Shown one piece after another: positions 13,753 to 43,299 of a stretch of DNA of 64,000 nucleotides. The notes under the pieces were generated by a model. It saw nothing but the letters and a program-made list of their open reading frames with translations, was not told where the DNA came from and made no database searches. The first letter of the stretch is position 1, and every line of letters begins with the position of its first letter. The translations under genes and the position numbers were made by a program. Source of the stretch: Verrucomicrobia bacterium Tous-C9LFEB (lineage in GTDB: Bacteria > Verrucomicrobiota > Verrucomicrobiia > Methylacidiphilales > UBA1321). The stretch lies in assembly GCA_002304345.1 (NCBI GenBank), contig NEUU01000005.1, forward strand, positions 62,001 through 126,000, written 5' to 3'.

Positions 13753-13778
13753 GGCGGTACTTCGGTACCGCCTTTTTT
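13753..13778 (+). terminator. Rho-independent terminator after the PEP-CTERM pair
   Basis: The perfect 8-bp stem GGCGGTAC/GTACCGCC is capped by a stable TTCG tetraloop and followed by six T residues. It begins 36 bp after the stop codon at 13717. This is the clearest intrinsic terminator in the window. Confidence 0.9.
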
Positions 13779-13832
13779 GCGCAGTCAGGCTGAAGTGAGC
13801 GCGGCGATTTTCGTTTCCATACTGGGTGGTGC

Positions 13833-15063: not shown

Positions 15064-15390
15064 GTGATTACCGTTGCTATTGAAAAAAGTGGCCATGTCG
15101 TTATCGTCGTGGTCAAAGGCCGATTGGATGCGAGCACGAGCGCAGAACTGGAGAAAAAGCTGGCGGAAGCGGGTGGCGCGGCGAAGAAGCCGTTGGTCCT
15201 CGATTTTCAGGAGCTGGAATATATCAGCAGCGCCGGTTTGCGCGTCCTGATTTCCCTCTGCCAGTCGAAGCAGAAGGCCGTTATCTGCTCCATGCCGGAG
15301 CTTGTTGCCGAAGTGTTCGACATCTCCGGCTTGAGTTCGATGTTCGAGCGCTACGCTGATCGCTCCACTGCGATCAAGGCGCTGGCGTAG
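15064..15390 (+). CDS. STAS domain anti-sigma factor antagonist-like protein
   Basis: This 108-aa single-domain protein has the STAS fold. VVIVVVKGRLDASTSAELEKKL opens it, and LVLDFQELEYISSAGLRVLISLC follows. The phosphorylatable serine is expected at S55 or S56 in ISSAGLR. Relatives such as SpoIIAA/RsbV switch partner proteins according to serine phosphorylation. No kinase or phosphatase partner lies nearby. The start is GTG, 4 bp after the patatin gene, so the two probably share an mRNA. Its 3' end overlaps the convergent MFS gene by 17 bp. Confidence 0.88.
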   Translation: MITVAIEKSGHVVIVVVKGRLDASTSAELEKKLAEAGGAAKKPLVLDFQELEYISSAGLRVLISLCQSKQKAVICSMPELVAEVFDISGLSSMFERYADRSTAIKALA

Positions 15391-16822: not shown

Positions 16823-17084
16823 AAAAGGAGTTAGCAAAAGCTCGAGGGTCGGGCGTCTACAAGGCGGCTGATGATGTGGCCGGGGCCGCAAAGAACGCAA
16901 GGTGGAATCAGATGCTTCACAGAATCAACGAGTTAATTATTGGATAAATTGGATGGTGAAAGAGACGTATTAAATTTGGTGTTGACTATCAAGCTCTCAG
17001 AATAATACTCATCGCATAAGTTTACAACTTAGTATTAACCTTCCAACTAATAATATAGCAACGCTTTAAACGGAGATCAGGACT

Positions 17085-17402: not shown

Positions 17403-17633
17403 ATGTCTGAAAGTGCCGACAACAAGCGTTACCGCGTCGTGATCAATCACGAGGAACAATACTCCATCTGGGTGGAAGGTCAGCCTCTGCCTCTGGGCTG
17501 GAGCGCGGAAGGTAAGGAAGGTTCGAAGGAAGAATGCCTCGCGTATATCAAGACCGTTTGGGTCGATATGCGTCCTTTGAGTCTTCGTCAAGCCATGGCT
17601 CGCGAATCCGCCCCGACTGTTCCTGCGGTGTAA
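17403..17633 (+). CDS. MbtH family protein
   Basis: This 76-aa protein shows the MbtH signature almost in full: NHEEQYSIW at 15-23, LPLGW at 29-33, ECLAYIKTVWVDMRPLSLR at 44-62, with the three conserved tryptophans at 23, 33 and 53. MbtH proteins bind NRPS adenylation domains and are needed for their solubility or activity. Its place two genes upstream of a four-module NRPS fits. A GGGAG ribosome site lies about 10 bp before the ATG. The usual proline after the first Trp is replaced by valine. Confidence 0.96.
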   Translation: MSESADNKRYRVVINHEEQYSIWVEGQPLPLGWSAEGKEGSKEECLAYIKTVWVDMRPLSLRQAMARESAPTVPAV

Positions 17634-17681: not shown

Positions 17682-18866
17682 ATGCCCCGAATTATTCTCC
17701 ATTCCGGTAAAGGCGGCGTCGGCAAGACGACCACCTCTGCCGCCACGGCTCTCGCTTGTGCCAAGTACGGTCACCGCACGATTGTCTTATCCTTTGACCT
17801 CGCGCACAGCCTGTCGGATTCCTTCGACATCGACCGCGACCTCTTTGACCAGAACAAGGGAATGCCCTTCAACGTCGCACCGAAGCTCGATATTCAAGAG
17901 ATCGACGTGCAGGAAGAACTCGAGCGTCACTGGGGCGACGTCTATAAATACTTCGCCATGTTGCTGACCTCCTCCGGCGTCAAGGACGTCGTGGCCGAGG
18001 AAGTGGCCGTCATTCCCGGCATGGAAGATGTCATCTGCCTCCTGTATCTCAATCAGTACGTGAAGGAAGGCAATTACGATGTGATCGTGGTGGACTGTCC
18101 GCCCACGAGCGAGTCGATCCGTTTTGTCAGCATGACCTCCACTCTCGAGTGGTACATGGGCAAGCGCTTCGGCATGGATCGCAATCTCCTCAAGCTTGCG
18201 CGGCCCCTCGCCAAACTCGCCGATTACGGTGCGTTGCCGGAGGACAGCTATTTCGAAGCGATCAAGAATCTTTTCCACCGTATCGAGGGTGTGGAGACGA
18301 TTCTCATCAATCCCGAAATCACCACGGTGCGTCTCGTCACCAACGCCGAGAAAATGGTGGTGCGTGAAACGCAACGCGCGTTCATGTACTTCAGCATGTA
18401 CGGCCTGACCACGGACGGCGTGGTGGTGAACCGTCTGTTGCCGCAGGGCGACGAGTACTTCAAGCAATGGGTCGCCACGCAGACCAAGCACCTCGGGGAA
18501 ATTGAGGAATATTTCAACCCGGTGCCCGTCACCAAGGTGCCGCTTTTCCGCGACCAAGTGATCGGTCTCAAACGGCTCGAAGAAGTCGGCCAAGTGCTCT
18601 TCGGTAAAAAAGATCCCGCCGAAATTCGCGTGAAAGGTTCCACGTTCCAATTTGAGAAGAAGGGCGCGAAGTATGTGTTGCGACTTCCCATGCCGTTCGT
18701 GAACAAGGAAGCCATCGATCTTTCCCGCCAGCATGACGACCTCTTTATCCGCATCGGCAGCTTTAAGCGGCACGTACCACTCCCCCGTGCCGTGGCCCGG
18801 CTCTCTACAGAGGGCGCCGAGATGAAAAATGGGGAACTGCATGTAACCTTCGCCAAGGAGAAATAA
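17682..18866 (+). CDS. ArsA/Get3-type ATPase with HSP20-like C-terminal domain
   Basis: This 394-aa deviant-Walker P-loop ATPase has GKGGVGKT at residues 9-16, the switch-I-like SFDLAHSLSDSFD around 37-49, and DVIVVDCPPT as the switch-II/Walker B region near 131. The last about 85 residues form a beta-rich HSP20-like unit (FEKKGAKYVLRLPMPF; DDLFIRIGSFKRHVPLPRAVA), as in the ArsA_HSP20 group. It has one nucleotide-binding domain and lacks the arsenite cysteines of ArsA and the zinc CxxC of Get3, so arsenic export is unlikely. Get3 homologues chaperone helical membrane segments; here the two small helical neighbours could be clients or cofactors. The gene ends 1 bp before the second small gene, whose ribosome site lies within it. 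Confidence 0.9.
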   Translation: MPRIILHSGKGGVGKTTTSAATALACAKYGHRTIVLSFDLAHSLSDSFDIDRDLFDQNKGMPFNVAPKLDIQEIDVQEELERHWGDVYKYFAMLLTSSGVKDVVAEEVAVIPGMEDVICLLYLNQYVKEGNYDVIVVDCPPTSESIRFVSMTSTLEWYMGKRFGMDRNLLKLARPLAKLADYGALPEDSYFEAIKNLFHRIEGVETILINPEITTVRLVTNAEKMVVRETQRAFMYFSMYGLTTDGVVVNRLLPQGDEYFKQWVATQTKHLGEIEEYFNPVPVTKVPLFRDQVIGLKRLEEVGQVLFGKKDPAEIRVKGSTFQFEKKGAKYVLRLPMPFVNKEAIDLSRQHDDLFIRIGSFKRHVPLPRAVARLSTEGAEMKNGELHVTFAKEK

Positions 18867-18867: not shown

Positions 18868-19119
18868 ATGGCCACCGCTGAAAAAAAGGCTCCCACGCCT
18901 GAAGAGATCAAGACGTATTGCAAGGAAGCCTCGGAAAAGCTCGCCTCCCACCTTAAGGAAGGCGTCAAAGTCAGTTCGGAAATCGGTCACATCATTCACC
19001 GGAATGTCCTGACCGCGCAGAAGGAATTGCTCGAACACCACATCGGTCGTCTCGAGGCGCATCTCAAGAAATTGGATGCGGAATTGGAATCGGAAGCGCC
19101 GCGCGCGAAAAAGCGCTAA
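18868..19119 (+). CDS. Small helical protein B of the NRPS operon
   Basis: This 83-aa, charge-rich, predicted all-helical protein has a basic C-terminus (RAKKR). It resembles small protein A (17085-17318): residues 48-70 share LxAQxExL, E and terminal LxxLD at the same spacing, and the ungapped match extends to about 11 identities in 34 positions. A GGAG site inside the end of the ATPase gene precedes the ATG, and the gap to the ATPase stop is 1 bp, so translation is coupled. No transmembrane segment or signal peptide is present. No known family was recognised. Confidence 0.75.
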   Translation: MATAEKKAPTPEEIKTYCKEASEKLASHLKEGVKVSSEIGHIIHRNVLTAQKELLEHHIGRLEAHLKKLDAELESEAPRAKKR

Positions 19120-19243
19120 GCCTCCGAAAGCCAGTCATTTCTCCGCCCGGTTTCCCTCGCCTTGATTTTCCTCTTCCACTCCGGTGGGGGAGGAAATCCG
19201 GGCGAGGGCGGGCCGCGCGTCTCTCCTCCCTCCCTCCTCCATC

Positions 19244-22200
19244 ATGCGTTTATCCATCGGCCAGGAAGCGCTCTATTTTGAGCATCAGGCCAACCCGCAT
19301 TCCTTTGCGCTCAATGAGAGCACGCTGATGCGGTTGCGCTCGGAGCTCAACGTGGAGGCCTTGCACCGGGCCATCCAGCGACTGGTCGACCGGCACGAGA
19401 ATCTCCGGGTCAATTACCGCCTCACCGCCTCTGGGGTGGAAGCGATGGTGCATCCGCAAGTTCGCGTCGATTTTCAAGCCATCGACGCCAGCGCCGGGGG
19501 CGAGACTGCTGTCGCGGCGGCGTTGGTTGCGATCCAAAACCAGCGACTTGACCTCGAGCGCGATCCCTTGTTCCTCGTGCGGCTGTGGAGCCTCTCGCCG
19601 ACGGATCATCGTTTGCTGTTTCTCTATCACCATATCGTCGTGGACGGTTGGTCCCACTGGATGCTTTTGGAAGAATTGCGGATGTGCTATCGCGCGGAGT
19701 GTGGGGGCGAGCCCGCCCAGCTTCCGCCCATCGAAGAACATTTCGAAAACTACGTTCGCGCTCAGGAAGAATTTCTCGCCAGCCCACGCGCTGCCACGTT
19801 GGCATCCTATTGGGAGAAGAAGCTGGCCGATGCCCCGGTCCGTCTAAACCTGCCGACCGATCATCCCCGGAGCGAGACCAGAGACGACCGTGGAGACAGC
19901 GTGGGCGTCACCTTGGCACCGGAACTCTACACGGCACTGAGCGAGTTGGCCACCAGTCGCCGCACCAGTCTCTACACACTTCTGCTGGCGGCCTACCAAG
20001 CGCTTTTGCATCGCTACACCGGCCAGACGGATATTCTCGTCACCTCTCCGGTCCATGGGAGAAATGACAAACGCTGGAACTCCCTCGTGGGCTATTTCGT
20101 CAACCAGATCGTTCTGCGCGGACAGCCCACGGCAGCGATGTCGTTTGAGGATTTCTGGGCGCAATTGCGCACCACTGTTTTTGGAGCGTACAAGAACGCC
20201 GCTTATCCCTTTCCATTGGTAGTTCGGCAGGCGGCGCAACAGCAGGAGACGCGCTCCTCCATGGCGCATGTTTCCTTCGTCTACCAAAAGAGTCAGTACC
20301 GCGACGATGATTTGTTGCTCGTCTATCCCGGAGCTTCAACCGACGATCACGTCGATTTTGCGGGATTGGATGCCTCGGCCCTCACGCCTCCGCAAAAACC
20401 CTGTCAGTCCGAAATCGGATTGATTGTGGCTGAGGCGCGCCAATCGTTGCGGCTGCAATTCACCTACCAGACGGCACTTTTTGAAGCGGCAACGATTCGC
20501 CGTTTTGCCGCGCATTTTCAGGAAGTGCTCACAGCGATTGTCCGCGATCCCTCGCAAGGCATCGGACAGCTTGGAGAACTCGCCGGGGTGCCTGTCATTC
20601 ACCGTCAGGAACTCCTGCCGCCGCGGCCTCCTCTGCCTGTTGAAAGTACCATCGTGGAAAAAGTAGCCGCGATCCGCGCACGCTACCCGGACCACGTCGC
20701 CATCGAGTGCGATGGCATGACGGTGACGTATGCTGAGCTTGACGTTCGCAGTACTCAACTGGCCCGTCGTTTGCAGGGTCTCGGGGTTCGGCGCGATGAG
20801 GTGGTGGGGCTGCTTCTGGAACGCTCGCCAGAGGCGATTATCTCTCTGCTCGCGATTCAAAAAGCGGGCGCGGCCTATCTTCCGCTTTCGCCGGACTATC
20901 CGCAGGACCGGTTGGAATATCTCGTGCGAGATGCCGGTGTGCAGGTCGTGCTGACCGCTCCACCCGACCGCCGCGAAATCGACTCGCCCGTGCAGTGGCT
21001 GGATGTCACGACATTGACCGAATTCTCGCTGCCCGAGTCCGCTGAAGCGCCGCTGATTGACCCACTGCCGGCACAGGCAGCCTACCTGATCTACACTTCC
21101 GGTTCCACCGGCAAGCCCAAGGGCGTGATCGTTTCGCAAGGCAATATCGCCACGCTCGCCCAATCTTTCGCTTTGTTGTTCCGGCTCAAGCCTGAGTCGC
21201 GGATGATGCAATTCGCATCGCTGACCTTTGACGCCTCCTGTGCGGAAATTTTTCCCGCACTCGTGACAGGTGCACGCCTCGTGATTCCCGCGCGCCATCA
21301 GTTGCTGCCCGGGAGGGAGACGGTTGATTTGATGGAGCGTAGCCAGGTGACGCACCTTGTGGCCACCCCATCCGGCCTCTCGTTGTTGCCTCCCCGCGAC
21401 TTGCCGGCGCTGGAGATGATCATCCTCGGTGGTGAGGTAATCTCACCTGCCTTGCAGCAGCAGTGGCGCAAGCGTTGCCGCTTGATCAACGGCTATGGTC
21501 CCACGGAAGCCACGGTGGCTGTCACCTCTTCCGAGGAATGGGAGGAAGATGAACTACCACCGATTGGCCGTGAAATGGAGGGCACGGAAGCCTACGTGCT
21601 CGACACATCGTTGCAGCCTGTGCCCAAAGGTGTGAGCGGCGAGATTTACATCGGCGGAGCGGGCGTGGCACGGGGGTATCGCAATCGGCCGGATTTCACC
21701 GCCGAGCGCTTCATCCCCGATGGCTTCAGCGGTCGTCCCGGCGCACGCCTCTATCGCACGGGCGATCTCGGCCGTTGGCGGGAAGATGACCAGCTCGAGT
21801 TTCTCGGTCGCATCGATCAGCAGGTGAAGATTCACGGTCACCGCATGGAGCCCGGAGAAATCGAGGCGCTCCTGCTGGAGCACCCGGCCGTGACGGCCGC
21901 TGCCGTATTGGCGCGGAAAAATCAGCGCGATGAAATGGAACTGGTGGCTTTTGTCACGGCCTCGCGTCCAGAGGATTTTCGTGCCTATCTCGCGGCCCAC
22001 CTGCCGGTCTACATGGTGCCGGCTGCCATTGCGGTTCTCGACGTAATGCCGCTCACGATCGGGGGTAAGATCGACCGCCAGAAGTTACAGGTTCTGCCAG
22101 TGGCGACAGCGCCGACCACCGCCCGTGTTCCTCTCGAAACGGCGATGGAAAAAGAGATTGGCGCTGTCTGGTCGGAGCTGTTGCAGGTCGATGGAGTCGG

Positions 22201-25200
22201 ACGGTACGATCATTTCTTTGCCTTGGGCGGGCATTCCCTCCTGGCCATCCGCGTGATCGGACGATTGCACGAGTCGCTCTCGTTCGAAATCTCCCGCGGT
22301 CTCCAGCTCTTTCTTTCACATCCCGTGCTGGAAGATTTTGCCCGTCGTTTGGAATCGATTTGTAGCGGGGAGGTGGCTTCCAACCGGAAAAATGAATCCA
22401 TTCCCACTGTGGAAAACGGATCGCGCTATCCACTTTCCTTCGCCCAGGAACAGCTCTGGTTCGTTAACCAGCTTGATCCGGGAAACACGGCCTACAATAT
22501 CCCGCTCGTGCTGCGCTTGCGGGGAAATCTCGACGCCGATGCGCTGGCGCGTGCGGTTGATGCGCTCGCGCAACGCCATTCATCCCTGCGCACGTGTTTC
22601 CAAGCGAGTGACGCCGAACTGCAGCAGCAGATTGTCGACCTGCATCTCCCTCTTGAAAAAATTGCGTTGGCCGGAGAAACCGTCGAGGCACGACTCGTCG
22701 AAGCGACGGCCCATCTGCGCGCGATCCTGCAGCGACCATTCGATCTGCGTTCCGCTCCGCTGCATCGGGTGATGCTTTATTCGCTGGCGCCGGATGATCA
22801 TCTTTTGCTGACAGAATTCCATCACATCATTGCCGATGGCTGGTCGTTTGGGATTTATCAACGCGAACTCGCCGCGCTCTATGCGGATTTTGCCGCAGGC
22901 CGGGAGTCCTCACTGCCATCCCTGCCGATTCAATATGGCGACTTCGCCGTCTGGCAGCGTGACCGTCTTTCCGGCGAACGGTTGCAACAGCTCAATGATT
23001 ACTGGCTGAAGCAGCTTGCACACACCACGCCAACGGAATTGCCGTGGGATCAAGCCCGACCTGCCGTGCAGACGTTCCAAGGCGCAACGCACCGCAGCCG
23101 AATCGAACCGGCATTGCTGGCGCGCTTGAAGCATCTTGCCCGCGAGGAAAATGCCAGTCTCTATATGGCCTTGCTCGCGGCGTTCAACGTTCTGTTGCAT
23201 CGCTACAGCGGGCAGGAGGACATCCTCGTTGGCTCGCCACACGCCAACCGCCTGCGGCCCGAAGTGGAAGGGCTGATCGGCGCTTTTGCCAATGTGCTGG
23301 TCTTGCGCTCGCATCCGACGCCGGACGAATCCTATCGCCGCTTGCTGACCGCGACGCGGGATATGGCCAATGCCGCGTTCGCGCATCAGGAATTGCCGTT
23401 TGAAAAGTTGGTCAATCAACTCGGCCTCGAACGCGACCTGAGCCGTAATCCACTCATTCAAGTGGTGTTTGCCCTGCAGAATGCCGGCGGAAATGAGGCC
23501 TCGTGGCCGGGACTGACCGCGCAGGAGTTTGACGTGCCCGTTGACTCCACCCGCGTCGATCTGGAATGTCACGTGCGCGAGTTGGACAACGCGGCGGAAA
23601 TTCTATTCGTCTACAACACGGCCTTGTTTGCCCCGGCTACGATCGAACGCTTCTCCCGCTACTGGCTCACCTTGATGGAATCCATTGTGGCCGATCCCGA
23701 CCGGGCCATCGGTCAACTGGCCATGATGGAGGACGCCGAGCGACAATGTGTGCTCGACTGGTCGTGTGGAGTAAAGGTGCGCGAATGCGCGGGCACGGGC
23801 CAGACACTGACCGCGCTGATGGAGCGTGCCGTGCTCGAGTATCCTCTCGAGACAGCGGTGGAGTGGGACGGCGTCGCGATGAGTTATCAGGACTTGCATG
23901 TCGAGGCCAATAAGCTGGCGCGTCATCTCGTCGAGGTGCACGGTGTCAAACCGGAACGCCGCGTGGGCGTGCTCATGGGGCGCTCGCTGGATGCGGTGAT
24001 GGCATTTCTGGCCATTCAAAAAGCGGGGGGTGTCTATGTGCCGCTCGATCCGGATTATCCGGTCTCGCGTTTGGAATTTCTGATTGCGGACGCCGGACTC
24101 GATTTGATTTTGACTGGAGAAAAGAGCGCGCCCGAATTAACCGTTTCCTCCCGCGTGACCTGTCTCACGATGCGCGAAGCGCGTATCCGGTGCGCGGACG
24201 AAACGGGCATGCCACTTCCGCCCCGTTGCCAGGGCGACCACGCCGCGTACATGATTTATACCTCGGGCACGACGGGACAGCCGAAGGGGGTCGTCATTCC
24301 CCATGTCGGCATTGTCAACACGGTGCTGGCAATGGTGCGTGATTGTGGGCTCAAGCCCGGCATGCGCTTTTACCAATTCTGCTCGCTCAGTTTCGATCCT
24401 TCGCTGGTGGAGATCGCGGGATCACTTGCTTCGGGAGCCACGTTGGTAATTGGCCGCAAGGACGAGACGGCGCCGGGCGAACCGCTCTGGCGTTTTCTCA
24501 GCCAACAGCGCGTCACGCATTTACAAATCACCCCCTCGGCGCTCGCCTTTGTGCCGTGCCGGAAATGGCCGGAGCTGAGATTGGTGATCACGGGCGGAGA
24601 AAATCTCCCGCAAACCCTGGCACTACGCTGGCGCGAACACGCACGGGTGATCAATGCCTATGGCCCCACCGAAACCTCTGTCTGTGCGACCCTCACCGAT
24701 GCATGGAAAAGTGCCACGCCTCCGATCGGTTTCCCGCTGCCCAACGCGCAGGTGTACCTTCTCGATGCGACGTTGCAGCCAGTTCCGGCGGGCGTGCGCG
24801 GTGAAGTCTGCGTTGGCGGTGTGGGAGTGGCCCGCGGGTATCATCAGCGGCCCGAATTGACGGCGGAACGTTTTATTCCCGATCCGTTTTCCACCCAACC
24901 CGGTGCGCGTCTCTACCGCACGGGCGATCAGGGCCGTTGGCTCGCGGACGGGCAGATCGAATTTCTCGGCCGCATTGACACCCAGGTGAAGCTGCGCGGT
25001 TTCCGCATTGAGCTTGGCGAAATCGAGACGATCTTGCTTGAGCAACCGGAAGTGCAGGACGCCGCCGTAGTGATCTCTGCCAACGCCCGCTCGGAAAGTC
25101 TGGTGGGCTTCATCGTGGCGGAAGATGTGGCTGGGAAAGAGCAACTGCCGGAGCAATGTCTGCGGCAATTGCGCGCGCTGCTGCCGGCGCATTTTGTGCC

Positions 25201-28200
25201 CAATGCACTTTATCTGCTGGAGACGTTGCCAAGTACCCCGAATGGCAAGGTGGATCGTGCGCAACTTGCACGACTGGCGGCGACGCGCACGGCAGTGAAA
25301 TCATTTTCCGCGCCCACGACGCCGATGGAGCAGCGGGTCGCCGCGATCTGGAGCGAAGCGTTGGGGGTCGAGCGCGTGGGCCGCGAGGACAGCTTCTTCG
25401 CGTTGGGTGGTCACTCGCTACTCGCCACCCGCGTGCTGGCTCGCTTGCAGGAGGCCATGTCGCTGGATGTAGCTTCGGCGCTGAAGAATTTTTTCCGGTA
25501 TCCCACGCTCTCGGAATTTTGCGCCGCGTTGGAAACAGGCGTGGAGATGGTGGACGATATTCCCTGCGAGCCCGGCAGGACCACCGCGCCGCTCTCCTTC
25601 GCGCAACAACGATTGTGGTTCCTGCATCAACTTTTCCCGCTCGACGTCTCGTACAACGTGCCGATTCAGTTCCGTCTGCGCGGCGCGATTTCGCAAGAGG
25701 CACTGACGGCGGCGGTGCAGGAATTGATCGACCGTCACAGTATCCTCCGCACTCGTTTTCGTCCCGACGGACGGGGTGGCGCGATGCAGGAAATTTCACC
25801 TTCGATGCGGGCCCGCATCGAAATGCAGACTTTCGCCAAGAACGGCTTCACCGACGCGGGCGAGTGGGCGAACCATCATGCCTCCGCGTTCATTCAGGCA
25901 CCTTTCGATCTCGAGAAAGGTCCGCTGTTTCGCATGCAATGCCTGCATCTCGGCGAAGGGGAGTACCGTTTCGTCTGCTGCCTGCATCACATCATTTTTG
26001 ACGGCTGGTCGGCTCCGATCTTCATCAACGAACTCTTTGATAATCTCGATCTGAAGCTTGGACTCAAACCGGTCACGCGTCCTCCACTGCCCGTGCAATA
26101 CGCCGACTTTGCCGCGTGGGAACGACAACCCGCCCAGGAATCGCGCTGGCTCTCGGCGCTCGAATACTGGCGGCATCAATTGCGTGATCTTCCCGCGCTC
26201 GAGTTGCCCGGGGATCACCCGCGTCAGGCGGCGCCAAGTGGCCGCGCCGGTCGCCTCTTCTTTGAGATTCCGGCGGAGTTGTTGGCGAAGCTCGAGACTT
26301 TAACCCGCCAGTCCGAAGCGACTCCCTACATGGGATTTTTGGCGGCGTTCCAATTCCTGCTCGGGCGCTGGAGCGGTCAGGATGATTTTTCGGTCGGCAC
26401 TGCGGTGGCCAATCGCAACCAGAAGGAATTGCAAAATCTGGTCGGCTTCTTTGTGAACAGCCTCGTGTTGCGGGCCGATTTGCGGGGGGCGGTATCCTTC
26501 ACGGAACTTCTGACTCGCGTCCGCGCCACGGCGCGCGATGCCTTCGCGCATCAGGAAATGCCTTTCGAGCGATTGGTGGAGGAGTTGCATCCGAGCCGGG
26601 AACTGTTCAATCCCCTCTTCCAAGTGGTCTGTGTCTTGCAGCAGCCCCAGCAGGTGCATTACGAGCGCGCGCATTTTCTCGCGGACTGGGTCGCTCCGGA
26701 AGTGCCGTTGGCACGTGTCGATATTGAACTGCATCTGTTTGCGCACGACGACGGCTTTTCCGGTGGACTGGTCTATGATCGTGCCTTGTTCGAACCCGAG
26801 ACGATCGAACAATTGGCGGCGCAATATGTCCGCTTGCTGGAAAAAATTGTTTCCGATCCGAACCGGCCTCTGCGGGAATTCGATTTGCGCACTGAGAAGG
26901 AAGTTCGCAACGGAAGTCCGATGCCCCTCGCGGAGACGGAACCGGCCTCCACCGACTTTACCCAGCGCTTCTCCCTCGTCGCAGCCATTCACCCGGATCG
27001 CGTGGCGCTTGAAGAAAAAGAGCGTTGTCTGACGTATGCCGAACTCGATGCGCTGACCGACCGCGTGGCGCAGCGCTTGCAGCAACGCGGCGTGGGGCCT
27101 GAGACCATTGTCGGCGTAATGATGGATCGCAGCATCGAAGTGGTGGCCGCCATGCTCGCGATCATGAAAGCAGGCGGAGCTTATGTGCCACTCGACCGGA
27201 ATTATCCGCCCGATCGGCTCGCCTTCATCGTGCGCGACATCGACCTGCAGTACATCGTGACAGAGGGTCACTCGTTGCCGGTGGAAGGGCGGATGATGGA
27301 ATGGCTCGACTGGTCCTCGCTCGCGCAGCCCGACGGTGGGATGGAATTGGACACACGTTTCGCGGCGGCGGTGCTGCATCCGCAGCAGGCCGCTTACCTG
27401 ATTTATACTTCCGGTTCCACCGGAATGCCCAAGGGCGTCGTGGCGACACAGGCAAGTCTGTGCGCCTCCATGGCCGCGCAGACGGAGGCCTACCAGATGG
27501 GGCCGGAATCGCGCATGCTGCAAAATGCCTCTCTCAATTTTGATGCGTCGGTGCTGGAAATCTTCAGCCCGCTTTGGGCGGGGGCGCGGCTGGTTATCCC
27601 GGAAAAGAATGCACGTATTCCCGGTCCGGAAATGATCCGAACCTTGCGCCGGCATGCCGTGACTCACTTGGTGATTACGCCATCGGCGCTGGTTTCGCTT
27701 CCCGAAGCGGAGTTGCCGGAACTCCAGGTCATCGTGTGCGGTGGGGAAGCGTTGCCGCAGTCGGTCATCACCACATGGAAGCCGGGTCGTTTGCTGATCA
27801 ACGGTTACGGTCCTACGGAAACGGCCGTTTGCGTATCGGTCGCCTCCGAATGGGAAACGAATCGTCGCGCGCCGATCGGTCGTCCGCTGCCTACCACACA
27901 GCTTTATCTTCTCGACGAGGAATTGCGACCGGTGCCGGTTGGAGCACGTGGCGAGTTATACATCGGCGGTGCTCATGTCACACGTGGCTACCTGAATCGT
28001 CCCGATGTCACCGCCGAGCACTTTATTCCCGATCCCTTCAGTGATGAGCCGGGCGCGCGCCTGTACCGTAGCGGCGATCTGGGACGTTGGCGCGCAGATG
28101 GGCAGATTGATTTTCTGGGTCGCCGCGATGATCAGGTCAAGGTGCGCGGATTTCGTATTGAACTCGGCGAGATCGAGGCCGCCTTGCACGAACATCCGAG

Positions 28201-31200
28201 CGTCAAGGAAGCCATCGTGCTCTTGCGCGACAATGCGCGGCAGGAACGCGAAATCGCCGCCTATGTCGTGGCAAAACCCGATGGCGAGCGGTTGCAATCC
28301 GAGCGCGTGGGCGCGTGGCGGCAGTTGTACGATGACGTCATCGACAAGACGAGCCAAGCTGCTGATCCGGAACTCGATATTGTCGGCTGGAACAGCAGCT
28401 ATGACGGTCGTCCGCTGCCCGCCCTCGAGATGCGTGAATGGCGCGACCGCACCGTCGCGCAGATTCTCGCCTTGCAACCGCGGCGCGTGCTGGAAATCGG
28501 TTGCGGCACGGGTCTGCTGCTTTTGCCCACCGCTCCGCATGTCGATGCCTACTGGGGTGTCGATTTTTCTGCCGCCTCACTGAAACGCGTGGGAGCATCC
28601 GTCGAGCGCAAGGGCTGGAAGCACGTCCACTTGCTGAACCGTCGTGCGGACGAACTGGAAGATCTCACGGCGGAACGCTTCGATCTCGTCGTCATCAATT
28701 CCGTCATTCAATATTTTCCGAGCAACGACTACATGCTCAAGGTGCTCGAGCGGGTCATTGCCATGCTGCCCGACGGCGCGCGTTTGTTCCTCGGCGACGT
28801 GCGTAATCTCGAGCTGCTTTCCACCATGCAGGCTTCGGTGGAATGGAGTCATGCGGCGGACGATTGCACGCGCGAGGAACTGGCGCGTCGTGTGCGTCGC
28901 AAGGTGGAGGCCGAGACGGAGCTGTCCTTTAGTCCTGGCTGGATGCTGGCCCTGCCGGAACAGATCGCACGCATTCGCTCCGTCGATTTGCGCTGGCGTC
29001 GCATGCCCTTCGCCAATGAACTTTCCAAGTTCCGCTACGATGCGGTCCTGCAGATTGGTCCCACCACGGGCAGTCCTGTGCGGTCATGGGAAACACTGGA
29101 GGTCGTCGCTCCTGTGACGAGTCAGGATCTCGCGCAGGACTTGGAAATCGCCGCTTGGGTGGAAGATCGTAGCGAATGGGGAGCCGCCGCGCGGACCGTG
29201 GGCGAATTCCGCAAGCTGTTCGCGGCACACGCGCGTTCGCTGCAGCCGGACGATCTTGCGATTATCACCGGCACGCGTTCGCATGAAGCCGCCCGTGAGT
29301 TGACGAACAATCCGCTTCGGGCGCATATCACGCGGCAAGCGCAGGCCGATTTACGCCGCTACTTGGAAGAGCGTTTGCCCGCGCACATGATCCCGTCGAC
29401 GCTTTGCGTGCTCGATCATTTTCCCGCGAACCGCAGTGGCAAGGTGGATCGCGCCATGCTGCGCCAGATCGAGGAGGACCGCCACGATGGCACGGTGATC
29501 GAACCGCCCGCCACGGAAATGGAACGCCTCGTCGCCAAGGTGTGGTCGGAGCTTTTGCAAATCGAAGCGATCGGTCGTCACGATAATTTCTTTTCACTCG
29601 GCGGCCACTCCTTGCTCGCGATGCGTGTCATTGGCCGCTTGCAGGATTTGATCGAAGTCGACGTCTCGACGGTGCTGCAGAGTTTCTTCGCCCGGCCCAC
29701 GCTTGCTGAGTTTGCCCGCGAGCTGGAGCCCACTGCGCAGACCCGCGCCGTGTCGCGCATTCTTCCCGGCACAGCATCGGGCGACATCCCGCTGTCGTAT
29801 GCGCAGCAACGGTTGTGGTTCCTGGAAAAATTATTTCCCGGACAGACCGCTTATCAATCGCCCTTCGGTTTGCGCATGACGGGTTCTATTCCCGCTGACC
29901 TTGTCCGGCAAGCCTTGCAAGCGGTGCTGGATCGCCATAGTGCGTTGCGGACCATTTTTGCGACGCGACAAGGCCGCGCCGTGCAACTCGTGCAGGAGAA
30001 CGTGGTCCTGCCCTTTTCCGTCGAGAGCTGGAATGGGCAAGGCGACGCGCAAGCGTGGTTGCAAGCGCAGGCGAATGTGTTCATCCGCAAGCCGATCAAT
30101 CTCGAGTGCGATCCGCTGATCAAGGCGAAGTGGTTCCAGCTCCGCGAAGGCGAGCAGGTGTTGCTTTGCTCGATCCATCACATCGCTTTCGATGGGTGGT
30201 CAGCGCCGATTTTATTGAACGAGTTTTTAAGCAATCTCGATGGTCTTCTCAGCGGGTCATTACCGTCGCGTCCGCCGCTGGCCATTCAATACAGCGACTA
30301 CGCTGCCTGGGAGCGGTCACCAGTACAGGAAGCGCGCTGGGGCGAGTCGGCGGCCCATTGGCGCGAAGCGCTCGCTGGTTGCGAACCGTTGCGATTGCCG
30401 CAGGAAGGCGAACCTGCCGGGGAAGCCGGACAGGTGAAAATTAAAATTTCCCGCGAGGTGTCCACGGCTCTCCGTGAGTTGGGTCAGCGGCAGGGCGCTT
30501 CGCTTTTCATGACCTTGCTTGCCGGGTTCGATGTGCTCTTATCCCGCTGGAGCGGGCAGGAACGGTTTATCCTCGGCACTGGGATTGCCAATCGGCACCA
30601 GAAAGAGTTGCAGGAACTGGTCGGCTTTTTCGTGAACAGTCTGGCGTTGCCCGCAGATCTGTCCGGCCAGCCAACGTTCAACGAATTGCTCACCCGCACG
30701 CGCGACACGGTGCGCACCGCTTTTGCGCATCAGGAAATTCCCTTCGAACGGCTCGTGCAGGAATTGCAACCGGAACGCACGCTGCGCAATCCGCTCTTCC
30801 AGGTGGTCTTCCTGTTGCAGGACGCGCCGCCTGATCGCTGGCCGATCTCCCATTTCCAGATCGAACCGTACGCGCTCGAATGGACGACCACACGCATGGA
30901 TCTGGAGTTGCATCTGAGCGACGCGGAAGAGGGGATTCACGGCGTCATGTATTACGACCGCTCGCTCTTTTCCGCTGGTACAATGGAACGCGTGGCGCAT
31001 CAATTGGAGCGGATTTTGCAACAGGTCGCCGTTGCCCCGGACCAACCGCTTTCGGAGATCCGGCTCCTCGACGATCAGGAGCGTCAGCGCCTCCTCCAAC
31101 AGGGCAGTCAGACTGAAACGGCCACCAACGCCCGCTCGATTCTGGAAGTGTGGAATGAGACGATTCGACTTCACTCCGATCATGTCAGCGTGCATTGCGG

Positions 31201-34200
31201 CGAACGCATTCTCACCTATGCGGAATTCGATGCGCAGGCCAATCGACTCGCCCGGCTTCTCCGCGCTAAGGGGGTGCGGCCCGAATCGCGCGTGGCGCTT
31301 TTGATGGGGCGTCGACCGGAAACCATCGTGGCGATGATCGCCGTGCTCAAGGCAGGCGGCGCTTACGTGCCGCTCGATCCGGAGCACCCGGCGGAACGCT
31401 TGCAATGGATGATCGATGACGCCGCGCCGTTGTTCGTTCTGACGGATGGTGCTTACTTCGAGATGGATCACCTCGTGCTGGATTGGGACGAGGCGATGCG
31501 CGAGGCCGCCGCGCTCGATGCCACGCCGTTGCCGGTGGCGGCGCGGGGCGATAATCTCGCTTACCTGATTTATACATCTGGTTCCACCGGCTTGCCCAAG
31601 GGTGTGGCGATCACACACGGCAATCTCGGTCACGCCGCGGAAGCCTTGGCGAAGGCCTACGCGGTGCGACCTGATTCGAGCGTCATGCAACTGGCCACGT
31701 TCACGTTCGATGCCTCGGTGGCCGAACTCTTCATGGCCTTCGCGGTCGGGGCCCGGCTGTTGATGCCCGCCACGAAGGATGAGTTGGTGGGCCAATCGCT
31801 CTGGCAGTTGCTGAAAAAAGAGCAGGTCTCCCATCTGCAAATCACGCCGTCCGCGCTCGCCTTGCTGCCCGTGCAGCCCTGGCCGGGATTGGAAACCCTG
31901 ATTGTCGTCGGCGAAGCGTTTCCGAAAGAACTCGCCGAGACATGGCGCGCGCATGCGCGATTGATCAATGGCTATGGTCCGACCGAGGGCACCATCTGCG
32001 CGACCTGCGCCACCGAATGGATGGTCCATACGCCGCCGCCGATCGGTCGTCCGATCGAACGCGTGACGGTTTACCTTCTCGACAATGCGATGCAACCGGT
32101 GCCTGTCGGTGCGCCGGGTGAAATCTATATTGGCGGCGCAGGCGTCGCGCGCGGGTATTGGGAGCGGGTGGAATTGACTGCGGCGCGTTTTGTGCCGGAC
32201 CCGTTCCATCCGCAGGAGGGAGCCCGACTGTATCGCACCGGCGATCGCGGTCGCTGGCGCGCGGATGGACAAGTGGAATTCCTCGGCCGCGTGGACGATC
32301 AGGTGAAGATTCGCGGGCAGCGCATCGAGTTGGGCGAAATTACAGCCGCGCTGTTGTCTCACTCCGGCGTGCGCGAAGCCGCCGTGCGCGTGGTGGAAGG
32401 CGAAGGCCGCGAAGCCATCTTGGCCGGTTACGTTGTGGCGGCAGAAGACGGCGAAGCCTTGAGCCACGGCCACGTCGCTGACTGGCAGCGCTTGTACGAT
32501 GGACTGATGACGCAGCCGCACGCGGAAGCCACTTCGACTTTCAATATCAATGGGTGGAATAGTCTCTACACGGGTGGACCGCTTCCGGCGGAAACCATGC
32601 GCGTCTGGCAGCAGTCGATCACCCGGCAGATTCTGGCGTTGCAACCGCGCCGCGTTCTCGAGATTGGTTGCGGCAGCGGCTTGATGCTTTTCCCCGTCGC
32701 GCCGCATTGCGAAAGCTACTGGGGCACCGACCTCTCGCAAGCCACGTTGCAGCGGCTTGAGCGCGTCGTGCAGGAGCAGGGACTCAAGCAGGTCAAACTC
32801 TGGCATCGTCCCGCCGACCAGTGGGATGATTTTGTCGGGACGAGTGTCGATACCGTGGTGTTGAACTCGGTTGTGCAATATTTCCCCACGCTCGATTACC
32901 TGCGGCAAGTACTCGTGCAAGCCTTGCGCGTGGTGGCGCCGGGCGGACGCATTTTCCTTGGCGACGTGCGGCATCTCGAATTGCTGGAAGCTTTGTATGC
33001 CTCCGTGGAATTGGCTCGCGCCGGGGAGAATACCAGTCGCGAGGAATTGCGCCGTCGCGTCGCGGCGCGTCTGGAACGCGAGGAAGAGCTGGCGATCAGT
33101 CCCGCCTTCTTCCGCAACTTGACGGAGTTCAGCTCGCGCCTGACGCGGATCGAAATCCGTCCGCGTGGTGGCGTTGCCAACGAACTTTCCCAATTCCGTT
33201 ACGATGTTGTCCTGCATGTGGACGATGCGGCGGAAGCGATGGAACCCTTCGGTTGGTCTGCCGAGGTGGAGAAAGCGCTCGTCCGTGACTGGCAGACACT
33301 GCAGTGGATTCGCGATGAATTGATCGCGCCGGACGCGCGGACTGCGGGCGAATGGCGCTCCAGAATCGATCAGTTGCCGGAGCGTTTCACAGCGGAAGAG
33401 CGGTCGGCCTTGCTCGCGGAAAAAACGGTGGAAGGCCGCGCGTTCTCCAATCATCCGCTGCATCACCGCTCGCGCGAGCAACTCGTCGTTGCCTTGCGCA
33501 CCCACTTGCGCCGCACTCTGCCCTCGGTCATGGTGCCGTCGCATCTTCTGGTGTTGGACCGGATGCCGCTCACGGTGGGCGGGAAAATTGATTTACGCCG
33601 GCTTCCCGTACCGATGACCCAGGCGAGCTGCGCGGATCGCGTCCCGGTGCAGCCGCGTCATCCGATGGAAGATCTCGTCGCCTCGGCCTACGCGGAAGTG
33701 CTCGGTTTGGAACGCGTCGGTCCGACCGATAATTTCTTCGAGCTCGGCGGTCATTCGTTGCTCGCATACAGCCTCATGGAAAAACTGCGACAGCGCACGG
33801 GGCGCGAACTTTCGCTGACCCGTTTCTTCACCGGTCCTACGGTGGAACAGGTCGCGGCGAATTTGCTCGAACAGACGCGCGAGATGGCGTGGTCCCCCTT
33901 GGTGCCGATTCAGACCTCGGGGCAGGAGCCGCCTTTCTTTTGCGTGGCACCGATTTTGGGCACGGTTTTTCCGTACTTCGAGCTGGCGCGTCAGCTCGGC
34001 CCCAATCAGCCGTTCTACGGATTGCAGCCGCGTGGGCTCGACGGCAAACAGACTCCGCATGATTCCATCGAAGCGATGGCGCGGGAATTCGCCGAGGCAA
34101 TTCGTTCTGTGCAGCCGCAGGGTCCGTACCGGATCGGCGGCTGGTCATTCGGTTCGCCGGTTGCGTTTGAAACGGCGCGTCAACTTGAAGCAATGGGGCA

Positions 34201-34783
34201 AACCGTGTCGGTGGTCATCAGCCTCGACGGTGCCTTGCCCACGCCGCGACAAATCATGCCGCGGAGCAGTCTGGCCAAAGGCGTGTGGTGGGGAATGACC
34301 GCCCTGTTCCGTCAGACGCTTCCCTATCTTGGCGATTACCTGTATCTCGCCGCGCAGTCGTCGCGGCTGCTGCGTCCGGAATCCGCTGCTTCGCGTCAGC
34401 CGTGGTCCTTCACCGCCTGGATCGGCGAACGGTTGGGTCGTCTCGCGGGTGCGCCGGTCGTGTCCAAACAATCGCGCTTGCTGCTCGTCGAGCAACCGCT
34501 GTGGCGTGGCATGTTTGCGGTTTTTCGCGCCAATCTTCGCGCCTTGCGGGGCTATCACCCGCAGCCGATTCACGCGCCTGTGATCCTGTTCTATAGCGAG
34601 GCCAGTCCCGTGGGCCGTCAGCCGTTGGATACTTGGCGCGGAATGTCGCCCGGGATTGAAGAAGTGCCTGCCTCGGGCGAGCATATGACCATGCTGCGTT
34701 CGCCGCATGTGGAAGGTCTCGCCAAAGTGCTGCACCAGAAATTTGATGCGGCCGTTACAGTCCGCTCCACGACCGGGTCGTGA
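19244..34783 (+). CDS. Four-module nonribosomal peptide synthetase, C-A-T x2, C-A(nMT)-T x2, TE
   Basis: This is a 5,179-aa NRPS, numbered from the ATG at 19244. Module 1: C (HHxxxDG at 129), A (YTSGSTGKPKG at 617), T (Ser 998). Module 2: C (1193), A (1672), T (Ser 2058). Module 3: C (2248), A (2721), N-methyltransferase inserted in A (VLEIGCGTG at 3082), T (Ser 3456). Module 4: C (3645), A (4110), N-methyltransferase (VLEIGCGSG at 4471), T (Ser 4838). The end is a type I thioesterase (GWSFG, Ser 4968). All C motifs and T serines look intact, and there are no epimerase domains. It predicts a tetrapeptide with residues 3 and 4 N-methylated. The N-terminal C domain suggests N-acylation or upstream loading. 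A GTG start at 19184 would add 20 residues; neither start has a good ribosome site. Confidence 0.95.
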   Translation: MRLSIGQEALYFEHQANPHSFALNESTLMRLRSELNVEALHRAIQRLVDRHENLRVNYRLTASGVEAMVHPQVRVDFQAIDASAGGETAVAAALVAIQNQRLDLERDPLFLVRLWSLSPTDHRLLFLYHHIVVDGWSHWMLLEELRMCYRAECGGEPAQLPPIEEHFENYVRAQEEFLASPRAATLASYWEKKLADAPVRLNLPTDHPRSETRDDRGDSVGVTLAPELYTALSELATSRRTSLYTLLLAAYQALLHRYTGQTDILVTSPVHGRNDKRWNSLVGYFVNQIVLRGQPTAAMSFEDFWAQLRTTVFGAYKNAAYPFPLVVRQAAQQQETRSSMAHVSFVYQKSQYRDDDLLLVYPGASTDDHVDFAGLDASALTPPQKPCQSEIGLIVAEARQSLRLQFTYQTALFEAATIRRFAAHFQEVLTAIVRDPSQGIGQLGELAGVPVIHRQELLPPRPPLPVESTIVEKVAAIRARYPDHVAIECDGMTVTYAELDVRSTQLARRLQGLGVRRDEVVGLLLERSPEAIISLLAIQKAGAAYLPLSPDYPQDRLEYLVRDAGVQVVLTAPPDRREIDSPVQWLDVTTLTEFSLPESAEAPLIDPLPAQAAYLIYTSGSTGKPKGVIVSQGNIATLAQSFALLFRLKPESRMMQFASLTFDASCAEIFPALVTGARLVIPARHQLLPGRETVDLMERSQVTHLVATPSGLSLLPPRDLPALEMIILGGEVISPALQQQWRKRCRLINGYGPTEATVAVTSSEEWEEDELPPIGREMEGTEAYVLDTSLQPVPKGVSGEIYIGGAGVARGYRNRPDFTAERFIPDGFSGRPGARLYRTGDLGRWREDDQLEFLGRIDQQVKIHGHRMEPGEIEALLLEHPAVTAAAVLARKNQRDEMELVAFVTASRPEDFRAYLAAHLPVYMVPAAIAVLDVMPLTIGGKIDRQKLQVLPVATAPTTARVPLETAMEKEIGAVWSELLQVDGVGRYDHFFALGGHSLLAIRVIGRLHESLSFEISRGLQLFLSHPVLEDFARRLESICSGEVASNRKNESIPTVENGSRYPLSFAQEQLWFVNQLDPGNTAYNIPLVLRLRGNLDADALARAVDALAQRHSSLRTCFQASDAELQQQIVDLHLPLEKIALAGETVEARLVEATAHLRAILQRPFDLRSAPLHRVMLYSLAPDDHLLLTEFHHIIADGWSFGIYQRELAALYADFAAGRESSLPSLPIQYGDFAVWQRDRLSGERLQQLNDYWLKQLAHTTPTELPWDQARPAVQTFQGATHRSRIEPALLARLKHLAREENASLYMALLAAFNVLLHRYSGQEDILVGSPHANRLRPEVEGLIGAFANVLVLRSHPTPDESYRRLLTATRDMANAAFAHQELPFEKLVNQLGLERDLSRNPLIQVVFALQNAGGNEASWPGLTAQEFDVPVDSTRVDLECHVRELDNAAEILFVYNTALFAPATIERFSRYWLTLMESIVADPDRAIGQLAMMEDAERQCVLDWSCGVKVRECAGTGQTLTALMERAVLEYPLETAVEWDGVAMSYQDLHVEANKLARHLVEVHGVKPERRVGVLMGRSLDAVMAFLAIQKAGGVYVPLDPDYPVSRLEFLIADAGLDLILTGEKSAPELTVSSRVTCLTMREARIRCADETGMPLPPRCQGDHAAYMIYTSGTTGQPKGVVIPHVGIVNTVLAMVRDCGLKPGMRFYQFCSLSFDPSLVEIAGSLASGATLVIGRKDETAPGEPLWRFLSQQRVTHLQITPSALAFVPCRKWPELRLVITGGENLPQTLALRWREHARVINAYGPTETSVCATLTDAWKSATPPIGFPLPNAQVYLLDATLQPVPAGVRGEVCVGGVGVARGYHQRPELTAERFIPDPFSTQPGARLYRTGDQGRWLADGQIEFLGRIDTQVKLRGFRIELGEIETILLEQPEVQDAAVVISANARSESLVGFIVAEDVAGKEQLPEQCLRQLRALLPAHFVPNALYLLETLPSTPNGKVDRAQLARLAATRTAVKSFSAPTTPMEQRVAAIWSEALGVERVGREDSFFALGGHSLLATRVLARLQEAMSLDVASALKNFFRYPTLSEFCAALETGVEMVDDIPCEPGRTTAPLSFAQQRLWFLHQLFPLDVSYNVPIQFRLRGAISQEALTAAVQELIDRHSILRTRFRPDGRGGAMQEISPSMRARIEMQTFAKNGFTDAGEWANHHASAFIQAPFDLEKGPLFRMQCLHLGEGEYRFVCCLHHIIFDGWSAPIFINELFDNLDLKLGLKPVTRPPLPVQYADFAAWERQPAQESRWLSALEYWRHQLRDLPALELPGDHPRQAAPSGRAGRLFFEIPAELLAKLETLTRQSEATPYMGFLAAFQFLLGRWSGQDDFSVGTAVANRNQKELQNLVGFFVNSLVLRADLRGAVSFTELLTRVRATARDAFAHQEMPFERLVEELHPSRELFNPLFQVVCVLQQPQQVHYERAHFLADWVAPEVPLARVDIELHLFAHDDGFSGGLVYDRALFEPETIEQLAAQYVRLLEKIVSDPNRPLREFDLRTEKEVRNGSPMPLAETEPASTDFTQRFSLVAAIHPDRVALEEKERCLTYAELDALTDRVAQRLQQRGVGPETIVGVMMDRSIEVVAAMLAIMKAGGAYVPLDRNYPPDRLAFIVRDIDLQYIVTEGHSLPVEGRMMEWLDWSSLAQPDGGMELDTRFAAAVLHPQQAAYLIYTSGSTGMPKGVVATQASLCASMAAQTEAYQMGPESRMLQNASLNFDASVLEIFSPLWAGARLVIPEKNARIPGPEMIRTLRRHAVTHLVITPSALVSLPEAELPELQVIVCGGEALPQSVITTWKPGRLLINGYGPTETAVCVSVASEWETNRRAPIGRPLPTTQLYLLDEELRPVPVGARGELYIGGAHVTRGYLNRPDVTAEHFIPDPFSDEPGARLYRSGDLGRWRADGQIDFLGRRDDQVKVRGFRIELGEIEAALHEHPSVKEAIVLLRDNARQEREIAAYVVAKPDGERLQSERVGAWRQLYDDVIDKTSQAADPELDIVGWNSSYDGRPLPALEMREWRDRTVAQILALQPRRVLEIGCGTGLLLLPTAPHVDAYWGVDFSAASLKRVGASVERKGWKHVHLLNRRADELEDLTAERFDLVVINSVIQYFPSNDYMLKVLERVIAMLPDGARLFLGDVRNLELLSTMQASVEWSHAADDCTREELARRVRRKVEAETELSFSPGWMLALPEQIARIRSVDLRWRRMPFANELSKFRYDAVLQIGPTTGSPVRSWETLEVVAPVTSQDLAQDLEIAAWVEDRSEWGAAARTVGEFRKLFAAHARSLQPDDLAIITGTRSHEAARELTNNPLRAHITRQAQADLRRYLEERLPAHMIPSTLCVLDHFPANRSGKVDRAMLRQIEEDRHDGTVIEPPATEMERLVAKVWSELLQIEAIGRHDNFFSLGGHSLLAMRVIGRLQDLIEVDVSTVLQSFFARPTLAEFARELEPTAQTRAVSRILPGTASGDIPLSYAQQRLWFLEKLFPGQTAYQSPFGLRMTGSIPADLVRQALQAVLDRHSALRTIFATRQGRAVQLVQENVVLPFSVESWNGQGDAQAWLQAQANVFIRKPINLECDPLIKAKWFQLREGEQVLLCSIHHIAFDGWSAPILLNEFLSNLDGLLSGSLPSRPPLAIQYSDYAAWERSPVQEARWGESAAHWREALAGCEPLRLPQEGEPAGEAGQVKIKISREVSTALRELGQRQGASLFMTLLAGFDVLLSRWSGQERFILGTGIANRHQKELQELVGFFVNSLALPADLSGQPTFNELLTRTRDTVRTAFAHQEIPFERLVQELQPERTLRNPLFQVVFLLQDAPPDRWPISHFQIEPYALEWTTTRMDLELHLSDAEEGIHGVMYYDRSLFSAGTMERVAHQLERILQQVAVAPDQPLSEIRLLDDQERQRLLQQGSQTETATNARSILEVWNETIRLHSDHVSVHCGERILTYAEFDAQANRLARLLRAKGVRPESRVALLMGRRPETIVAMIAVLKAGGAYVPLDPEHPAERLQWMIDDAAPLFVLTDGAYFEMDHLVLDWDEAMREAAALDATPLPVAARGDNLAYLIYTSGSTGLPKGVAITHGNLGHAAEALAKAYAVRPDSSVMQLATFTFDASVAELFMAFAVGARLLMPATKDELVGQSLWQLLKKEQVSHLQITPSALALLPVQPWPGLETLIVVGEAFPKELAETWRAHARLINGYGPTEGTICATCATEWMVHTPPPIGRPIERVTVYLLDNAMQPVPVGAPGEIYIGGAGVARGYWERVELTAARFVPDPFHPQEGARLYRTGDRGRWRADGQVEFLGRVDDQVKIRGQRIELGEITAALLSHSGVREAAVRVVEGEGREAILAGYVVAAEDGEALSHGHVADWQRLYDGLMTQPHAEATSTFNINGWNSLYTGGPLPAETMRVWQQSITRQILALQPRRVLEIGCGSGLMLFPVAPHCESYWGTDLSQATLQRLERVVQEQGLKQVKLWHRPADQWDDFVGTSVDTVVLNSVVQYFPTLDYLRQVLVQALRVVAPGGRIFLGDVRHLELLEALYASVELARAGENTSREELRRRVAARLEREEELAISPAFFRNLTEFSSRLTRIEIRPRGGVANELSQFRYDVVLHVDDAAEAMEPFGWSAEVEKALVRDWQTLQWIRDELIAPDARTAGEWRSRIDQLPERFTAEERSALLAEKTVEGRAFSNHPLHHRSREQLVVALRTHLRRTLPSVMVPSHLLVLDRMPLTVGGKIDLRRLPVPMTQASCADRVPVQPRHPMEDLVASAYAEVLGLERVGPTDNFFELGGHSLLAYSLMEKLRQRTGRELSLTRFFTGPTVEQVAANLLEQTREMAWSPLVPIQTSGQEPPFFCVAPILGTVFPYFELARQLGPNQPFYGLQPRGLDGKQTPHDSIEAMAREFAEAIRSVQPQGPYRIGGWSFGSPVAFETARQLEAMGQTVSVVISLDGALPTPRQIMPRSSLAKGVWWGMTALFRQTLPYLGDYLYLAAQSSRLLRPESAASRQPWSFTAWIGERLGRLAGAPVVSKQSRLLLVEQPLWRGMFAVFRANLRALRGYHPQPIHAPVILFYSEASPVGRQPLDTWRGMSPGIEEVPASGEHMTMLRSPHVEGLAKVLHQKFDAAVTVRSTTGS

Positions 34784-35456
34784 CGGTCCAGTCCAGTCCT
34801 TCCACCGCCAGCGCGGCGGAGTAGTCGGGCGGGCTGGGGAGATCACTCACGCGCCAACGCGTCACTTCTGCCGGAGCGAAGCGCGTGGCGAGCAGGGCCG
34901 AGGTGCAACCCGGTTCCAGCGATACATCGAACTCCGCCAGCGGGAGCGAAAGGCCGTCCCCGCGCGCTTTCAGCCAGGCCTCTTTGCGCGTCCAGATTCG
35001 AAAGAACGCAGGGGTTTGTTCTGCAGCGGGAAGTTGAAACAGGGTGGTCGATTCGCTCTTGGAAAAGAAACGTGCTGCGAGCGTGGCGAGATCGGGCAGG
35101 GGTTTGATTTGCTCCACATCGACGCCCACTTCGTAATCGTGGCTGATCGCCACCAGCGCGAGATCTCCGGAGTGCGAGAGATTGAAATGCACACCGCAGT
35201 GCGGCGGTTCCAGTCGCGGTTTTTCCCAGCCGTTTTGCTGAATCATGATGTCAGCAGGAGCAAGCGAAACATGTTGTGCCAGCAAAGATCGCAACGCCGC
35301 GTGACTGATGCTGTAGCGTTGACGGTCCCGCTCGAAATGAAAGGCGTCCGCTTTCGTGCGTTCGGCGGTGGAGAGGAGCGCGCGGCAGTCTTCAATCTGC
35401 GCGAGGTGCTCGGTCCAGGCGATGGACCAGACTTCCACCGTGCCGGGCTTAGTCAT
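34755..35456 (-). CDS. Sfp-type 4'-phosphopantetheinyl transferase
   Basis: This 233-aa enzyme transfers phosphopantetheine from CoA to T-domain serines. The magnesium motif GVDVE is at 111-115 (D113, E115), followed by FFRIWTRKEAWLKARGDG at 151-168 with catalytic E159. The N-terminal NLSHSGDLALVAIS is also typical. It presumably activates the adjacent NRPS, whose 3' end it overlaps by 29 bp in convergent orientation. Its start codon lies within the last codons of the LacI gene (8-bp overlap), so its translation is coupled to that regulator. The length is normal for the Sfp group. Confidence 0.95.
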   Translation of the reverse strand: MTKPGTVEVWSIAWTEHLAQIEDCRALLSTAERTKADAFHFERDRQRYSISHAALRSLLAQHVSLAPADIMIQQNGWEKPRLEPPHCGVHFNLSHSGDLALVAISHDYEVGVDVEQIKPLPDLATLAARFFSKSESTTLFQLPAAEQTPAFFRIWTRKEAWLKARGDGLSLPLAEFDVSLEPGCTSALLATRFAPAEVTRWRVSDLPSPPDYSAALAVEGLDWTVTTRSWSGL

Positions 35457-43286: not shown

Positions 43287-43299
43287 GACAGCGTGAGGC

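What the first reader, a model, noticed from the sequence alone, without database searches (positions are those of the whole stretch)
19244..34783. NRPS predicts a tetrapeptide with two adjacent N-methyl residues and possibly an N-acyl cap
Seen: four intact C-A-T sets, nMT inserted in the third and fourth A domains, terminal TE, no E domain, and a C domain at the very N-terminus. Established: nMT in A gives N-methylated residues; an N-terminal C domain often acylates the first residue. Inference: acyl-X1-X2-(NMe)X3-(NMe)X4, linear or cyclised by the TE. No acyl ligase is in the window.
Basis: partly seen in the sequence, partly recalled or inferred. Interest (0 to 1): 0.65.

Follow-up and report, generated by a model that had tools for sequence, protein, structure and literature searches.

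The report
Lone synthetase for a methylated lipotetrapeptide
A bacterium and its sister species carry a single giant enzyme that most likely builds an acyl-capped four-residue peptide with two adjacent N-methylated residues; its entry domain is of the kind fed by fatty-acid or polyketide carriers although neither genome has a dedicated loader, and its first module is strikingly divergent between the two species.

Summary
In detail: one NRPS of about 5,180 residues (ATG 19244 to stop 34783), C-A-T-C-A-T-C-A(nMT)-T-C-A(nMT)-T-TE, no E domain, C at residue 1, core motifs intact. It is the only NRPS in the genome, with an MbtH gene (17403-17633) and an Sfp-type PPTase (34755-35456, minus) that the finding did not mention. 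A sister species has a full syntenic orthologue. Grouping with classical acyl-CoA starters is not formally excluded (p = 0.21). Either way C1 is an acyl-accepting entry domain, so the N-acyl cap is favoured. Unusually, neither genome has a FAAL, PKS or spare ACP: the acyl chain must come from the housekeeping AcpP or CoA pool. New: module 1 (C1-A1-T1) is divergent between the species (four-fold sites 59% different against 30% elsewhere; different A1 pocket), pointing to module exchange, so X1 probably differs. Residue identities and product are not shown. A new member of a known kind with two oddities.

The parts
15374..16900 (-). MFS transporter, candidate exporter
   Evidence: Pfam MFS_1 E 5e-60; 89% identical in sister species. 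Membership of the cluster is by position only.
17403..17633 (+). MbtH-like protein, A-domain partner
   Evidence: PF03621 71.6 bits, only copy in both genomes
17682..18866 (+). ArsA-family ATPase with HSP20-like domain; role in the pathway unknown
   Evidence: Pfam ArsA_ATPase E 3e-88; close homologue only in the two NRPS-bearing genomes of those searched
18868..19119 (+). 83-residue protein of unknown family between ArsA and NRPS
   Evidence: ORF conserved in sister species, no Pfam hit
19244..34783 (+). NRPS, C-A-T-C-A-T-C-A(nMT)-T-C-A(nMT)-T-TE
   Evidence: full orthologue in sister species
19244..20593 (+). C1, acyl-accepting entry condensation domain
20624..22093 (+). A1, pocket DAAVIGGVAK (sister species DVAVIGAIIK)
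   Evidence: final K is the A10 lysine, read by eye
22157..22351 (+). T1
19334..22708 (+). Module-1 stretch with strongly raised synonymous divergence between the two species; candidate exchanged block (maximum-likelihood segment about 19526-23140)
22424..23746 (+). C2, LCL type
23819..25273 (+). A2, pocket DPVQIGAVCK, same in sister species
25331..25531 (+). T2
25580..26902 (+). C3, LCL type
26930..29467 (+). A3, pocket DALVVGGVCK, interrupted by nMT3
28424..29173 (+). nMT3, N-methyltransferase between A8 and A9
29528..29722 (+). T3
29780..31096 (+). C4, LCL type
31133..33610 (+). A4, pocket DAAQIVGICK, interrupted by nMT4
32591..33319 (+). nMT4
33677..33859 (+). T4
33899..34753 (+). Type I thioesterase, release domain
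34755..35456 (-). Sfp-type 4'-phosphopantetheinyl transferase, converges on the NRPS 3' end
   Evidence: PF01648 69 bits and PF22624; the other PF01648 hit in each genome is an AcpS-size protein elsewhere

Best explanation
A self-contained assembly line for a short acylated peptide. The PPTase activates the four T domains and MbtH assists the A domains. C1 transfers an acyl group from an acyl-carrier protein, most likely the housekeeping AcpP, in trans (or from acyl-CoA) onto residue 1. C2-C4 join L-residues 2-4. nMT3 and nMT4 methylate the amino nitrogens of residues 3 and 4 before condensation. The TE releases acyl-X1-X2-(NMe)X3-(NMe)X4, as a free acid or cyclised through a nucleophile on the chain or a side chain. 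Shown: the genes, the domain order, intact motifs, the C-domain groupings, conservation of the whole line in a sister species, the lack of a dedicated acyl loader in both genomes, and the raised divergence of module 1. Inferred: acylation, its donor, N-methylation in the product, mode of release, and that residue 1 differs between the two species.
For: Domain order and motifs. C1 within the acyl-carrier-fed clade, 100 SH-aLRT in 195 rows and 100/99 in the careful 56-row tree; C1+LCL rejected, AU p 0.005. In that clade, nearly all members with upstream DNA at hand follow a FAAL, PKS or ACP (none seen for L053 and L083, L049 and L075 unclear). No other NRPS C domain, no upstream carrier or docking stretch. 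Only AcpP besides the four T domains, and only FabF-size KS, in both genomes. C2-C4 in the LCL clade. nMT3 like 5wmm. PPTase and MbtH present. Low dN/dS in modules 2-4 (0.01-0.19) says the enzyme is kept working.
Against: C1 is on a long branch (1.3-1.4 changes per site) and has lost the HQD of motif C6 (window KNAAYPF); its function may have drifted. Classical starter kinship is not excluded (AU p 0.21). No product is known. The assembly is 89.7% complete (sister 96%), so a loader could be missed, though both would have to miss it.
Confidence: 0.62

Rival explanations
1. Classical lipoinitiation: C1 is a diverged acyl-CoA starter domain (as in CDA, rhizomide) taking acyl-CoA from fatty-acid metabolism.
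For: N-terminal position, no loader gene; AU test does not exclude the grouping (p 0.207).
Against: Free trees put it with the acyl-carrier-fed clade at 100/99; PDB scores favour LCL-clade domains over starters (169 against 51 and 42 bits); no ordinary FadD-type ligase was recognised in either genome.
Confidence: 0.2
2. C1 is silent and the product is a tetrapeptide with a free N-terminus.
For: No loader; long branch; HQD lost.
Against: HHxxxDG kept in both species; C1 residues 78% identical despite near-saturated synonymous sites, so it is under purifying selection.
Confidence: 0.1
3. C1 receives a peptide or polyketide from an assembly line encoded elsewhere and missing from the assembly.
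For: The clade is typical of such hand-over; genome incomplete.
Against: No other NRPS C domain and only FabF-size KS in both genomes; no docking stretch on C1.
Confidence: 0.06
4. The module-1 divergence is an assembly artefact or ordinary fast evolution rather than exchange (this concerns the exchange claim only, not the product).
For: Both genomes are multi-contig assemblies; only two copies are known, so direction cannot be set.
Against: Both frames open over 5,200 codons; four-fold sites differ 59% in the block against 30% outside, best-segment 2dlnL 128 against at most 21.7 in 40 permutations; synonymous, not only residue, change is raised.
Confidence: 0.15

Closest known systems
FAAL-ACP or PKS-fed condensation domains of cyanobacterial and Chloroflexi lipopeptide/hybrid lines (e.g. 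Nostoc ATCC 53789 PKS-NRPS locus, L022; Halotia ligase-dioxygenase-FcoT-ACP-NRPS locus, L024)
   Same: C1 shares their clade and the LSxGQxALxF opening
   Different: Only 34-38% identical; here no FAAL, PKS or dedicated ACP anywhere in the genome
Classical C-starter lipopeptide synthetases (CDA, rhizomide RzmA)
   Same: N-terminal C domain, acyl donor from metabolism, no ligase needed in the cluster
   Different: Those C domains form another clade with strong support, though the AU test does not exclude kinship
A domains interrupted by N-methyltransferase between A8 and A9 (5wmm)
   Same: Insertion point and methyltransferase similarity
   Different: Two such modules in a row at the end of the line
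Natural NRPS recombination (PMC8097286)
   Same: Block of raised divergence inside an otherwise orthologous synthetase, changing the A pocket
   Different: That paper finds mostly A-core swaps and calls a C-A or T-C-A-T exchange an exception; here nearly the whole C-A-T is involved

Membership tests
Modular type I NRPS | Repeated C-A-T modules with intact HHxxxDG, A-motifs and LGGHS | tested here: met
N-methylating NRPS | nMT between A8 and A9 with SAM-binding motif | tested here: met
   activity not testable here
Acyl-carrier-fed (FAAL/PKS hybrid-type) C domain | Phylogenetic place | tested here: met
   100/99, 100
Acyl-carrier-fed (FAAL/PKS hybrid-type) C domain | FAAL, PKS or ACP directly upstream | tested here: not met
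   none in window or either genome
Classical C-starter (acyl-CoA) | Phylogenetic place with CDA/RzmA starters | tested here: inconclusive
   free trees against, AU p 0.207
LCL condensation domain (for C1) | Phylogenetic place with peptidyl-fed domains | tested here: not met
   AU p 0.005
LCL condensation domain (for C2-C4) | Phylogenetic place with peptidyl-fed domains | tested here: met
Lipopeptide synthetase | N-acylated product | not testable with these tools
   needs chemistry

The most novel reading that the evidence does not exclude
C1 is an acyl-carrier-type condensation domain that has lost its dedicated loader and now draws directly on the housekeeping fatty-acid AcpP, and the line diversifies by exchanging its whole entry module (C1-A1-T1) between species, changing the acylated residue while the methylated C-terminal half stays fixed.
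Probability: 0.35. Interest if true: 0.6.

Novelty: new member of a known kind. Interest (0 to 1): 0.42.

Why it matters
If true, it shows an entry domain of the FAAL/PKS-fed type working straight from primary metabolism, which would mean that genome mining for lipopeptides by their acyl ligases misses such lines. The paired species give a natural whole-module exchange, rarer in the literature than A-core swaps, with boundaries useful for engineering. The line is compact (one enzyme, with PPTase and MbtH alongside), so it can be tested in one laboratory host.

Tried and rejected
Pfam scans of the flanks: the plus-strand ORFs at 34707-36282 had no hits and overlap the PPTase and a LacI-type regulator on the other strand. 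A-domain residue prediction: pockets read with EntF as a positive control (its known code came out right), but none of the four codes matches one I know, so no residues are named. A search for close relatives of the line found none outside the genus: module 1 at most about 40% identical in 286 genomes of the class, C1 at most 38% in the named genomes, module 4 at most 44-47% in 388 genomes of the phylum. Host naming: 'of' needs a genome handle, so the attempt failed; from the shape of the kin tables I suspect Verrucomicrobiota, untested. Literature: no described match among the papers found. An E. coli colibactin region was fetched as a possible starter reference and then left unused.

Full report
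What is there. The frame 19184-34783 (+) is open for 5,199 codons. Pfam gives C-A-T-C-A-T-C-A(nMT)-T-C-A(nMT)-T-TE and no epimerisation domain. The ATG at 19244 is the likely start: upstream codons vary as non-coding DNA between sister species, and the C1 domain starts at once. Catalytic motifs are intact by eye. The nMT domains sit between A8 and A9; nMT3 matches the methyltransferase of 5wmm, which I know as an A domain interrupted by an N-methyltransferase (identity from memory). Two accessory genes extend the finding: MbtH at 17403-17633 and an Sfp-type phosphopantetheinyl transferase at 34755-35456 on the minus strand.

Genome setting. It is the only NRPS in the assembly (89.7% complete), and a same-genus species (96% complete) has a full, syntenic orthologue of 5,217 codons. 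Both genomes lack FAAL-type ligases, modular PKS and spare carriers: the own genome has an acetyl-CoA synthetase, an OleC-like enzyme and an Aas-like acyltransferase/acyl-ACP synthetase, the sister two further ANL hits of matching sizes; both have two FabF-size KS hits and one AcpP-like carrier besides the four T domains. The names given to these ANL enzymes are my reading of their sequences.

Subtyping C1. C domains were taken from the window, the sister species, 79 named-genome loci, class relatives and plasmid records. Rows were labelled by what feeds them: FAAL-ACP/PKS (acyl) or an A-T module (peptidyl). In a 195-row tree C1 lies in a 40-row set with 28 acyl-fed and no peptidyl-fed rows (SH-aLRT 100); in a careful 56-row tree the acyl set including C1 has 100/99. 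Forcing C1 with peptidyl-fed rows is rejected (p 0.005); forcing it with CDA, RzmA, EntF and two plasmid starter-like rows is not (p 0.207). The loci were found with patterns seeded by acyl-fed domains, so these are over-sampled; peptidyl-fed ones entered through the second pattern and through inner modules.

Module 1. Residue identity to the sister orthologue is 58-83% over module 1 and mostly 78-99% after it. Synonymous divergence is 1.1-2.2 or saturated from about codon 131 to 1170 and 0.2-1.1, mostly under 0.75, after it. Four-fold sites differ at 59% in codons 61-1175 and 26-37% after it (Fisher p 1.5e-27, which treats sites as independent); a two-breakpoint scan puts the block at codons 115-1319 (2dlnL 128; 40 permutations reach 21.7 at most). 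Outside the genus no module is closer than about 40%, so the two module-1 copies are still each other's nearest kin: exchange with an unsampled relative fits best, direction unknown. The A1 pocket differs (DAAVIGGVAK against DVAVIGAIIK); A2-A4 pockets are identical.

Mechanism and limits. The combined reading is acyl-X1-X2-(NMe)X3-(NMe)X4 made by one enzyme with its own PPTase and MbtH. Acyl transfer by C1 is inferred from phylogeny, the donor from the absence of alternatives, N-methylation from domain identity. Release as acid or ring is open: with an acylated N-terminus, ring closure would need another nucleophile. Comparison with the literature: antiSMASH and NaPDoS recognise starter and (NaPDoS2) hybrid C subtypes (PMC10212144); corallorazine C1 is a starter that is proposed to use an ACP-bound acyl but accepts octanoyl-CoA in vitro (PMC11342130), a warning that donor type cannot be read from phylogeny alone.

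Noticed in passing
window 17682-18866 and 18868-19119: ArsA-type ATPase and an 83-residue protein lie between MbtH and the NRPS; a close ArsA homologue was found only in the two NRPS-bearing genomes among those searched, so they may belong to the pathway.
   Followed up: partly
window about 28154-30103 and 32444-33223 (codons 2991-3640 and 4421-4680 of the frame): Synonymous divergence to the sister species is unusually low (0.22-0.36) around nMT3-T3-C4 start and nMT4, which may mark a second, recent exchange or gene conversion.
   Followed up: no
window 11993-15059: Two PEP-CTERM proteins and a patatin-like phospholipase upstream; the patatin could supply fatty acids but nothing links it to the NRPS.
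   Followed up: no
window 40101-45370: RND efflux pump (AcrB-type), CusB/HlyD-like adaptor with heavy-metal-binding domain and a DUF2490 protein, a likely metal efflux set.
   Followed up: no
L031 (own genome contig C36): OleC-like AMP-forming enzyme next to a 352-residue protein; no matching hit in the sister genome.
   Followed up: no
L019, L020 (other genus of the same family): A different split NRPS set with KS-like, C, A and TE genes in two same-family genomes, unlike the window's line in architecture.
   Followed up: no
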